32,222 nt of DNA. Source: Bacteroidota bacterium. GTDB taxonomy: Bacteria > Bacteroidota > Ignavibacteria > UBA10030 > UBA8401. The notes below the pieces were generated by a model. That model was not told the origin of the DNA. It worked only from the letters and a program-made list of their open reading frames with translations, and did no database searches. The stretch lies in contig JAQUOA010000008.1 of NCBI GenBank assembly GCA_028749215.1, forward strand, positions 1 through 32,222, given 5' to 3'. Positions within the stretch are counted from its first letter, which is position 1; every line of letters starts with the position of its first letter. Below, piece after piece: positions 2,613 to 18,081 of the stretch. The position numbers were made by a program, and so were the translations under genes.

Positions 2613-3845
2613 CTAGTCTACGCACGGTGATGGAAACACGATCCTTTCTGGATGGATGCGTTGTCCATTGGACAAAAACCGTTGAATATAGACTTGAATT
2701 TGATTATTCCTTCCATCACACCATGCAACAACAAACTTCCCTTTTTCGTTCATCGCGACTGCCGGGAACTCCTGCACAGTTGGTTCCGGTGTCTTGTTAA
2801 CTATGAAATTTCTCCCGATAGGGCGCCCCTCATAATTAAAGAGTTGAGCGTAAATATCTCCAATCTGATTTTTAAAATCATTTCGATAATCTTCCCAAAC
2901 GCAGACAAACCTTCCCTTGGTTGATCCTGCGATTCGTGGCAGACGTTGCCATTGTTTAGTACGATCATCATTCACTTTAATGTTAGCCCGTGTAAATTTT
3001 TTTTTGTTTTTAATTTTCTGCAAATATATGTCCGATTCTCCCGTGCGATAGTCTTTCCACACGATAAAATAATCATCGGCGCCCCTATTCAAAACTTCTG
3101 GATTTGATGAATACGCATTGCCCTTGGATTCATCAACAACAATATTTTGTGAAAACAAAAGTTTCCAGTTGCTTTCTTTCGCATATACATGAAATAGTTT
3201 TTCTTCCAAATCCTGCCAGGCAAACACCATTGAAGAATCTATTCCCATTTTTACACAAGGATATTGAGGCAATGAAATTCCTTTCGTTACTAGAAAATTT
3301 TCACCGATCTTTTCTCCCTTATCACCATAACGCTGTGCATAGATCGCAGGACGACCCCAACGGTAATCTTGCCAAACAATGACACCGTTCCCATGAGGAT
3401 GAATAGACACCCGTGGACACATTGAAGGCATATCATGGTCGGCTGTACGCTGGGCCGAATCGATACAGCTTCCAATGTTTGAAAACCGTGTATACCAAAC
3501 AGCACCACGCCCATCTTGCCATTGTTCCCAAGTAACTGTTACATTTCCATATTCGTCAATCCCAAGATCAGCATTTTGGCCATAGCCTGTCAGAGATCCA
3601 TTGACAATGCACGGATGAAAAATAAACTTATTTGCCGTATCAAGAAGTGCTAAAAAAATATGTCCTCCTTGTTGCGGTGATGAATTACAAACAACGGCAA
3701 CAATACCACTCTTTGAAATTGTTACATTACAATTAACAAAATCGATTGATGGATCGCTTTCTTGCGCGTCCGATATCGATAAAAAAAATAAGCAAATGAC
3801 CCCATGGAATAACAATATAGTTTTATAAGAATCGGTAAAGTTCAT
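2613..3845 (-). CDS. Secreted W-x-D-x-R repeat protein, probable seven-bladed beta-propeller
   Basis: A 410-residue protein with a signal peptide (ILLFHGVICLFFLSISDAQE, cleavage likely after SDA). The mature part is made of about seven repeats of 45–60 residues, each with a hydrophobic strand, a W-x-D-x-R core and a strand like DIYAQ. Cores seen are WEQWQDGRG, WQDYRWGRPAIYAQRY, WQDLEEK, WKDYRTGESDIYLQ, WEDYRNDFKNQIGDIYAQ and WCDGRNNQIQVYIQRF, plus a degenerate first copy. Seven such repeats suggest a seven-bladed propeller. No catalytic motif, membrane anchor or type IX sorting domain is visible, so the function is unknown; an exported binding or surface protein is a guess. It lies just upstream of the TonB receptor on the same strand but is separated from it by 301 nt with its own promoter. 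The ribosome site is weak (TTGAG about 9 nt before the ATG). Confidence 0.8.
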   Translation of the reverse strand: MNFTDSYKTILLFHGVICLFFLSISDAQESDPSIDFVNCNVTISKSGIVAVVCNSSPQQGGHIFLALLDTANKFIFHPCIVNGSLTGYGQNADLGIDEYGNVTVTWEQWQDGRGAVWYTRFSNIGSCIDSAQRTADHDMPSMCPRVSIHPHGNGVIVWQDYRWGRPAIYAQRYGDKGEKIGENFLVTKGISLPQYPCVKMGIDSSMVFAWQDLEEKLFHVYAKESNWKLLFSQNIVVDESKGNAYSSNPEVLNRGADDYFIVWKDYRTGESDIYLQKIKNKKKFTRANIKVNDDRTKQWQRLPRIAGSTKGRFVCVWEDYRNDFKNQIGDIYAQLFNYEGRPIGRNFIVNKTPEPTVQEFPAVAMNEKGKFVVAWCDGRNNQIQVYIQRFLSNGQRIHPERIVFPSPCVD

Positions 3846-16526: not shown

Positions 16527-17030
16527 TTAGTTTTGAAAAAGTTCCTGCAGCGAAATACCGCGTTCATTGGCTATCATTTTTGCATCGCGCATTGACTGCA
16601 AGGCACGCAACGTCGCTTTCACAATATTGTGAGGATTCGGAGAACCCATTTGCTTTGTCAGCACATCCTTTACTCCGGCCATTTCCAATACAGCACGAAC
16701 GCCTCCGCCGGCAATCAATCCCGTTCCGGGCGCCGCAGGACGAAGCAATACTTTACCTGCTCCAAATTTCCCCACAGCATCGTGCGGCACAGTTCCGTTG
16801 ATCAAAGGAACTTTCACAACATTTTTCTTCGCATCGTCGGTACCTTTTGAAATTGCATCGGCAACTTCGTTTGCTTTTCCAAGACCGATGCCCACATGTC
16901 CGTTTCCGTCTCCCACCACAACAATCGCGTTAAAGCTGAATCGGCGTCCGCCTTTCACAACTTTTGCCACACGGTTGATGTGCACCAGCTTGTCTTTTAG
17001 ATCTAAATCACTTGCTTTTATTCGTGCCAA
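16527..17030 (-). CDS. rpsE: 30S ribosomal protein S5 with a TTG start
   Basis: A 167-residue S5, involved in decoding accuracy and mRNA unwinding. It has [37 protein letters not shown] and the C-terminal domain [19 protein letters not shown]. The alignable start is TTG ([10 protein letters not shown]), with TGAGGT six bases upstream and no ATG nearby. It follows the embedded tRNA-Gln by 42 nt rather than following rplR directly. Confidence 0.97.
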
Positions 17031-17072
17031 GATAAAACCTCACAATAATGATGATACTCTTTTATTGGAAAG

Positions 17073-17143
17073 CTGTCGGGAGAGGAGTCGAACCTCTACA
17101 TACGCCTCCAAAGGGCGCTGTCCTGCCATTAGACGACCCGACA
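17073..17143 (-). tRNA. tRNA-Gln (anticodon UUG) inside the spc operon
   Basis: The minus strand folds as a full cloverleaf of 71 nt: acceptor TGTCGGG/CCCGACA (7 bp), D arm GTCT/GGAC, anticodon stem GCGCC/GGCGT with loop CTTTGGA (anticodon TTG), variable ATGT, T arm AGAGG–TTCGACT–CCTCT and discriminator G. The weak U1–A72 pair is typical of bacterial tRNA-Gln. CCA is not encoded. It begins five bases after the rplR stop codon and lies 42 nt before rpsE, on the operon strand, so it is probably cut out of the ribosomal protein mRNA. Confidence 0.95.
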
Positions 17144-17148
17144 ACATT

Positions 17149-17517
17149 TTAAAATTTCAATCCGCCTTCACGCGCACCGTCGGCAAATGCTTTTACTCTG
17201 CCGTGGTACAAATATCCGTTACGATCGAACACAACCGTTGTAATTTTTTTATCAAGAGCTTTTTTGGCAAAAAGTTTGCCGACCACCGCACTCTTCTCCA
17301 ATTTCGATTTCGCTGATGCAAGTTCTTCTTTCACTTCTTTTGAATTAGTAGAAAGAGAAAGCAGGGTCTTTCCAGCCGTATCGTCAATAATCTGCCCATA
17401 AATTTCATTCAAGCTGCGGTACACAGAAAACCGCGGGCGTTCTGTGGTACCGAAAATTTTCTTCCGAATAGTTTGCTTAATGCGAAGACGGCGTTTATTT
17501 GGTTCTTTTTTTATCAT
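17149..17517 (-). CDS. rplR: 50S ribosomal protein L18
   Basis: A 122-residue L18, which binds 5S rRNA in the central protuberance. It shows [37 protein letters not shown] and the C-terminal [20 protein letters not shown]. It starts at ATG 18 nt after rplF. The next element downstream is a tRNA-Gln only five bases past its stop, so tRNA processing would leave this message with a 3' end almost at the stop codon. Confidence 0.97.
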
Positions 17518-17535
17518 ATGCTCAACGTAAAGTTA

Positions 17536-18081
17536 TTATTTCGCTCCGGCCGCAGTTTTACCGGCTTTGCGACGGATATATTCACCTTCGTACTTCACTC
17601 CCTTGCCCTTGTACGGTTCAGGCGGTTTGAAGGATCGAATCTTTGCAGCAATTAAACCGACGAGCTGTTTGTCAAAGCCGCTGATCACGATATTCGTCGG
17701 CGTCGGCGCTTCAATTTTAATAGTTTCCGGTGCACGGAACACAATTGCATGTGAAAAGCCGAGAGCGAGTTGAAGATTCTTTCCTTTAATTTCTGCCTTG
17801 TAACCCACACCGACGAGTTCCAATTTTTTTGTGAATCCTGATGCAACACCTTTTACCATGTTGGCAATGTTGGCTCGTGTGGTTCCATGTAAAGCGCGGT
17901 CCGGACGATCGTCTGAACTGCGTGTCACATGAACTTCATTAGCTTTCACTTCAACGGCAACACGCGGATGAATTTGTTCTTTCAACTCACCGGCTTTCCC
18001 TTTTACGGTAACAACTCCGTTGTTGACGGTGACCGTGATACCGCTTGGGATGACAACTGGTTTTCTACCAATACGTGACAC
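17536..18081 (-). CDS. rplF: 50S ribosomal protein L6
   Basis: A 181-residue L6 near the factor-binding site. MSRIGRKPVVIPSGITVTVN at the start and GVGYKAEIKGKNLQLALGFS plus KIRSFKPPEPYKGKGVKYEG in the second domain identify it. It begins with GTG, with AAGGAG six bases upstream, 12 nt after rpsH. Confidence 0.98.
   Translation of the reverse strand: MSRIGRKPVVIPSGITVTVNNGVVTVKGKAGELKEQIHPRVAVEVKANEVHVTRSSDDRPDRALHGTTRANIANMVKGVASGFTKKLELVGVGYKAEIKGKNLQLALGFSHAIVFRAPETIKIEAPTPTNIVISGFDKQLVGLIAAKIRSFKPPEPYKGKGVKYEGEYIRRKAGKTAAGAK

What the first reader, a model, noticed from the sequence alone, without database searches (positions are those of the whole stretch)
17073..17143. tRNA-Gln(UUG) embedded between rplR and rpsE in the spc operon
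A complete cloverleaf lies on the operon strand, five bases after the L18 stop and 42 bases before S5, in one of the most conserved gene orders in bacteria. Co-transcription would mean that RNase P and 3' processing cut the ribosomal mRNA in two, separating S5–L30–L15–SecY from the upstream part and leaving L18 mRNA with almost no 3' UTR. Glutamine tRNA supply would be tied to ribosomal protein synthesis. I know of tRNA genes next to tuf in other bacteria but not of this placement.
Basis: partly seen in the sequence, partly recalled or inferred. Interest (0 to 1): 0.65.

Follow-up and report, generated by a model that had tools for sequence, protein, structure and literature searches.

The report
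Glutamine tRNA inside ribosomal protein operon
In most lineages of the bacterial group Ignavibacteria, the tRNA that reads the CAA glutamine codon sits inside the large ribosomal-protein operon between the genes for L18 and S5, so it is probably cut out of the ribosomal mRNA; it is an old, conserved placement that I could not find described, not an oddity of one genome.

Summary
A complete tRNA-Gln(UUG) gene lies at 17073–17143 on the operon strand, 5 nt after the L18 stop and 42 nt before the S5 start. It is not unique to this genome: it occupies the same slot in 62 of 82 sampled genomes of the surrounding clade (Ignavibacteria), in all sampled members of 10 family-level groups, and is absent from 5 other families and every outgroup sampled. 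The tree fits one ancient gain and about four losses; a single tRNA-bearing clade is rejected (AU p = 0.022). The helices show clear compensatory changes. The gene is the only tRNA-Gln(UUG) found in its own assembly. Families without it carry a differently built, free-standing tRNA-Gln(UUG); no genome checked had both. No promoter or terminator signal isolates it. Best explanation: it is co-transcribed with the S10–spc–alpha transcript and released by RNase P and 3' processing, which splits that mRNA. Co-transcription is inferred, not shown. tRNA genes inside ribosomal-protein operons are a known kind of arrangement; this position is a new variant.

The parts
17073..17143 (-). tRNA-Gln(UUG), 71 nt without CCA, U1-A72, G73
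   Evidence: ARAGORN; RF00005 59.6 bits; covariation
17149..17517 (-). rplR (L18), immediately upstream; stop codon 5 nt before the tRNA
   Evidence: ORF; TIGR00060 118.6 bits
17144..17148 (-). 5-nt spacer between the L18 stop and the tRNA 5' end (expected RNase P leader junction)
17031..17072 (-). 42-nt spacer between tRNA and S5 start, with Shine-Dalgarno-like GTGAGG; expected 5' leader of the released S5-L30-L15-SecY mRNA
   Evidence: no terminator found
16527..17030 (-). rpsE (S5), TTG start
   Evidence: ORF; TIGR01021 217.6 bits
9537..32222 (-). uninterrupted same-strand gene series around the tRNA: rpoC (cut), rpsL, rpsG, fusA, tuf, S10 genes, spc genes, alpha genes, engB-like GTPase
   Evidence: ORFs and translations; gene names by reading of the translations, only L18 and S5 tested with profiles

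Best explanation
A functional, sole-copy tRNA-Gln(UUG) gene is a fixed member of the spc operon in most Ignavibacteria. It is transcribed as part of the long ribosomal-protein transcript. The cloverleaf folds in the RNA, RNase P cuts at its 5' end and a 3' nuclease at its other end, CCA is added, and the tRNA is released. The cuts separate the mRNA ending in L18 from a new mRNA starting a few tens of nucleotides before S5, which keeps its own Shine-Dalgarno sequence and start codon. Production of the CAA-reading tRNA is thereby tied to transcription of ribosomal-protein genes. Shown: gene, position, conservation, selection on the fold, sole UUG copy in the assembly, lack of isolating signals. 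Inferred: co-transcription, cutting, and any effect on expression.
For: Intact gene with compensatory changes in 8 pairs. Same slot and strand in 62 of 82 clade genomes (61 called directly plus G021, where a scaffold gap cuts the tRNA). Only UUG glutamine tRNA in its assembly; CAA is used 105 times against CAG 87 in 34 window genes. In 32 of 32 further tRNA-bearing genomes the best match to the model is the operon copy. No promoter enrichment in the 100 nt upstream of the tRNA in 70 loci (sigma-70: 4.59 mismatches observed, 4.45 shuffled; Bacteroidota-type: 3.41 against 3.39); no terminator-like site in 16900-17600; with 3-8 nt after the L18 stop in several genomes any private promoter would have to lie inside rplR. 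S5 has a Shine-Dalgarno-like match in 53 of 61 tRNA-bearing genomes. RNase P RNA is present, 240 bits.
Against: No transcript data. The consensus scans are weak for this phylum, and an unrecognised promoter inside rplR or the tRNA is possible: a 9-of-12 sigma-70-like match overlaps the tRNA 3' end (17079-17051), though it did not look conserved in neighbouring genomes on inspection. In the 17 genomes with longer tRNA-S5 spacers, Bacteroidota-type matches were somewhat better than shuffled (2.88 against 3.54 mismatches), and some f10 genomes have a TAnnTTT-like motif between rplR and the tRNA, so private promoters may exist in some lineages. Canonical RNase Z was not found, so the 3' step is unassigned.
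Confidence: 0.8

Rival explanations
1. The tRNA has its own promoter (inside rplR) and the S5 genes have a second one; the placement is only an insertion at a tolerated site without shared transcription.
For: tRNA genes commonly have private promoters; some f10 genomes show a TAnnTTT-like motif upstream; a sigma-70-like 9/12 match overlaps the tRNA 3' end here; outgroup f8 genomes without the tRNA have a TATCTTTG motif in the same gap.
Against: No enrichment of either promoter type over shuffled sequence in the 100 nt upstream of the tRNA in 70 loci; no terminator here; 3-8 nt spacing from L18 in several genomes.
Confidence: 0.15
2. The tRNA serves chiefly as a processing element: cutting it out uncouples S5-L30-L15-SecY from the upstream spc mRNA, changing stability, translation or feedback control.
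For: Conserved position over a whole class; S5 keeps its own Shine-Dalgarno-like site.
Against: At least four lineages appear to have lost the tRNA and closed the gap to 16-39 nt without visible harm; in each, another free-standing tRNA-Gln(UUG) is present, which fits a tRNA-supply role better. The rplR-tRNA spacer has no consistent hairpin (mean z -0.25 over 46 spacers).
Confidence: 0.15
3. Pseudogene, mis-called repeat or assembly error.
For: The window is from a metagenome assembly of 341 contigs; single-base oddities occur (G025 anticodon GUG).
Against: Same gene in the same place in 62 genomes with compensatory changes.
Confidence: 0.01

Closest known systems
tRNA-Trp between rpmG and secE in the secE-nusG-rplKAJL gene series
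   Same: A single-copy tRNA gene within a ribosomal-protein/translation gene series on the same strand; present in this very genome (L166, tRNA at about 3635-3708, secE from 3730) and recorded for other bacteria (PMC8046335).
   Different: There the tRNA lies near the start of the series; here it lies in the middle of the spc genes, between two ribosomal-protein genes, and is a different isoacceptor found in one class.
tufB operon with tRNA-Thr-Tyr-Gly-Thr upstream of tuf
   Same: tRNAs carried with a translation gene (PMC8046335; co-transcription in E. coli is from my own knowledge).
   Different: A tRNA cluster at the front of the transcript, variable in content; not an insertion inside a ribosomal-protein operon.
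Classical free-standing bacterial tRNA-Gln(UUG), TGGGGYGTAGCCAAGYGGTAAGGCA type
   Same: Same anticodon and decoding role; U1-A72 and G73.
   Different: Different D arm and variable loop (65-71% identical overall), elsewhere in the genome, found in families lacking the operon copy and in most outgroups tested.

Membership tests
tRNA-Gln(UUG) gene | Cloverleaf fold over the family's cut-off score | tested here: met
   RF00005 59.6 bits against gathering 29; ARAGORN
tRNA-Gln(UUG) gene | Anticodon UUG, with U1-A72 and G73 typical of bacterial tRNA-Gln | tested here: met
   U1-A72 invariant in 23 distinct copies
tRNA-Gln(UUG) gene | Charged with glutamine and used in translation | not testable with these tools
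   No biochemical data; GlnRS profile TIGR00440 matches fragments on separate contigs of the own genome, the best over the cut-off
tRNA co-transcribed inside a ribosomal-protein operon (as tRNA-Trp in the secE gene series) | Same strand, between ribosomal-protein genes, no isolating terminator or promoter | tested here: met
   (sequence scans only)
tRNA co-transcribed inside a ribosomal-protein operon (as tRNA-Trp in the secE gene series) | Shared transcript and cutting by RNase P | not testable with these tools
   Needs RNA data; RNase P RNA is present
tRNA co-transcribed inside a ribosomal-protein operon (as tRNA-Trp in the secE gene series) | Position conserved across related genomes | tested here: met
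   62 of 82 clade genomes

The most novel reading that the evidence does not exclude
The tRNA is both product and processing site: its maturation obligatorily splits the spc transcript in Ignavibacteria, so that levels of S5-L30-L15-SecY are set by RNase P and the stability of a new 5'-monophosphate mRNA, and the CAA-reading tRNA rises and falls with ribosome synthesis; in genomes with only 3-8 nt after L18, a ribosome terminating on L18 would also compete with tRNA folding and cutting.
Probability: 0.25. Interest if true: 0.6.

Novelty: new variant of a known kind. Interest (0 to 1): 0.42.

Why it matters
The L18–S5 junction is part of one of the most conserved gene orders in bacteria. A whole class has kept what appears to be its only tRNA for the CAA codon there for a long time, and the families without it all have another, differently built copy elsewhere. 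This gives a natural experiment with both states on one tree: it can be tested whether cutting a tRNA out of a ribosomal mRNA alters the balance of ribosomal proteins and SecY, and how an essential tRNA is swapped between places in a genome.

Tried and rejected
Pseudogene or assembly error: rejected. Loss explained by glutaminyl-tRNA synthetase: GlnRS is found in most clade genomes with and without the operon tRNA and is not over the cut-off in the outgroups, so it does not track the loss. A stabilising hairpin at the 3' end of the L18 mRNA: a few genomes have strong ones (L037, L039, L164, L226), but there is no overall signal (mean z -0.25). Origin of the operon tRNA from tRNA-Glu: the D arm is 74-89% like tRNA-Glu and 56-61% like classical tRNA-Gln, but overall similarity does not decide (49-69% against 65-71%). 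Folding the tRNA with its flanks against shuffles was uninformative (z -0.57), although the acceptor and T stems appear in the predicted fold. An apparent absence in G021 (L165) is a scaffold gap inside the tRNA. Missed tRNAs in long rplR–rpsE gaps of six loci without an ARAGORN call: none found by Rfam. Paper searches found no report of this placement, but the library holds only open-licence papers.

Full report
What is there. The minus strand of the window from 32222 down to 9537 is one run of same-strand genes: rpoC (cut), rpsL, rpsG, fusA, tuf, the S10, spc and alpha genes (gene names read from the translations, with L18 and S5 confirmed by profiles). Between rplR (17149–17517) and rpsE (16527–17030) lies a 71-nt tRNA-Gln(UUG) at 17143→17073. 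ARAGORN and Rfam agree (59.6 bits). It starts 5 nt after the L18 stop and ends 42 nt before the S5 TTG start; GTGAGG before that start is a Shine-Dalgarno-like site. CCA is not encoded, as in 34 of the 37 tRNA genes of this genome.

Copy number. The own genome (3.02 Mb, 341 contigs, 96.7% complete) has 37 tRNA genes over the cut-off. Two are tRNA-Gln: this UUG copy and a CUG copy on another contig. By ordinary wobble rules only the UUG tRNA reads CAA, used 105 times against 87 CAG in 34 window genes, so the gene should be essential if no copy was missed. In 32 further genomes that carry the operon copy, that copy is the best match to a model built from it. Second matches that scored in the range of the classical tRNA-Gln were fetched: one is a tRNA-Gln(CUG) (G069) and one, in G107, is a second UUG tRNA of yet another body. 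No genome had the classical UUG tRNA together with the operon one.

Distribution. In the window's order, all 21 sampled genomes of its own family and all sampled members of families f2–f5 have the tRNA in the same slot and strand, while all 10 sampled genomes of family f6 lack it. The named records show that these are Ignavibacteria/Ignavibacteriales metagenome assemblies. In the wider class it is present in f10, f13, f14, f16 and f17 and absent in f7, f9, f12 and f22 and in the outgroup families f8, f11, f15, f18–f21 and f23; Chlorobiaceae, Bacteroidia, Calditrichota and other phyla among the named loci also lack it. Counting one per genome within the clade, 62 of 82 have it (61 called directly, plus G021 where a scaffold gap cuts through the tRNA). 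Spacers: L18 stop to tRNA, median 36 nt, range 3–54; tRNA to S5, median 45 nt, range 22–172. Without the tRNA the gap is 16–39 nt; a 66-nt value in the same output belongs to G021.

History. A tree of L6+L18+S5 (145 rows) needs 5 changes of state (shuffled labels about 48), which reads as one gain at the base of Ignavibacteria and four losses (f6; f7+f22; f9; f12). Only 2 changes are forced by well-supported branches. Holding all tRNA-bearing genomes together as one clade costs 53.6 log-likelihood units and is rejected (AU p = 0.022). Families without the operon tRNA, and most outgroups tested, have a free-standing tRNA-Gln(UUG) of the classical type (TGGGGYGTAGCCAAGYGGTAAGGCA…). The operon tRNA has another body: its D arm (GTCTAATGGCAGGAC) resembles tRNA-Glu, and overall it is 65–71% identical to the classical type. 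The simplest reading (inference) is that the clade's ancestor had both and descendants kept one or the other. Repeated re-import of either type is not excluded. GlnRS presence does not track the loss.

Selection. Among 23 distinct operon copies 99.2% of pair cells are standard; 8 of 21 pairs have changes on both sides (shuffled mean 4.6, none of 500 shuffles reached it), and slid controls fall to 43–55% paired. It is a working gene under long selection.

Mechanism. Shared strand, no terminator, no promoter enrichment upstream in 70 loci, and only 3–8 nt of spacer in several genomes all favour release from the operon transcript. RNase P RNA is present. S5 keeps a Shine-Dalgarno-like match in 53 of 61 tRNA-bearing genomes, as needed if its mRNA begins anew after cutting. 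The 3' step is unclear: canonical RNase Z (TIGR02651) is not over its cut-off in this genome or in 20 others of the class, while 9 of 14 control genomes pass; the nearest own protein is an MBL-fold enzyme at 78 bits against a cut-off of 293. No RNA data were available, so co-transcription, cutting and regulatory effects are inferences. Possible private promoters in some lineages (f10, and longer tRNA–S5 spacers) are not excluded.

Comparison with what is known. tRNA genes in ribosomal-protein or translation operons are established: tRNA-Trp is assigned with rpmG to the secE operon, and tRNA-Thr-Tyr-Gly-Thr to the tufB operon (PMC8046335). This genome has both kinds of neighbourhood: tRNA-Thr, Tyr, Thr, Gly, then an L33-like ORF, tRNA-Trp, secE and nusG. 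The passages of that survey read here (204 genomes, Proteobacteria and Firmicutes groups) mention no tRNA inside spc, and the text does not name rplR or rpsE. The Melioribacter roseus genome paper (PMC3534657) mentions 45 tRNA genes and, in the passages shown, no such placement. Other searches found nothing. The library is limited, so 'not described' is provisional.

Verdict. Real, conserved and probably undescribed in position, but a variant of a known kind. Its value lies in the class-wide natural experiment and in the either-or pattern with the classical tRNA-Gln, not in a new mechanism.

Noticed in passing
L158/L214 (G025 C46:24847-24917): In one genome the tRNA in this slot has anticodon GUG (His) by a single base change at position 34; congeners G060 and G061 have UUG. 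G025 has its own tRNA-His and tRNA-Gln(CUG), and no other UUG tRNA-Gln was found by the model. Sequencing error or a real anticodon change.
   Followed up: partly
whole genomes of the class; L307:163-1059: Canonical RNase Z (TIGR02651) is not detected over its cut-off in this genome or 20 others of the class, although 34 of 37 tRNA genes here do not encode CCA. Which enzyme makes tRNA 3' ends is open.
   Followed up: partly
L222 and L251 (family f8), rplR-rpsE gap: A gap of about 140 nt without a tRNA holds the motif TATCTTTG, like a Bacteroidota -7 element: a possible internal promoter at the same operon junction.
   Followed up: no
L024, L215, L216 against L209-L211, L290-L292, L300: tRNA-Gln(CUG) also comes in two bodies: in the own genome and in f5 genus g13 it has the D arm of the operon UUG tRNA (GTCTAATGGCAAGAC), elsewhere a TGTAATTGGCAACAC type; suggests replacement or conversion between isoacceptors.
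   Followed up: partly
L288 (G107 C5:85131-85201): A second tRNA-Gln(UUG) of yet another body (TGGTGTAACGGTAGCAC D arm, like L257 of outgroup f8) in a genome that has the operon copy; possibly acquired.
   Followed up: no
window 17030 and loci: rpsE start codons: TTG or GTG in 52 of 61 tRNA-bearing genomes, ATG in all 10 f6 genomes without the tRNA; follows families, so cause unknown.
   Followed up: no
families f1-f23: GlnRS is found in most Ignavibacteria but not over the cut-off in outgroups f8, f11, f15, f18-f21, nor in some members (G008, G026, G044, G075, G084, G110): patchy gain or loss of direct glutaminylation.
   Followed up: partly
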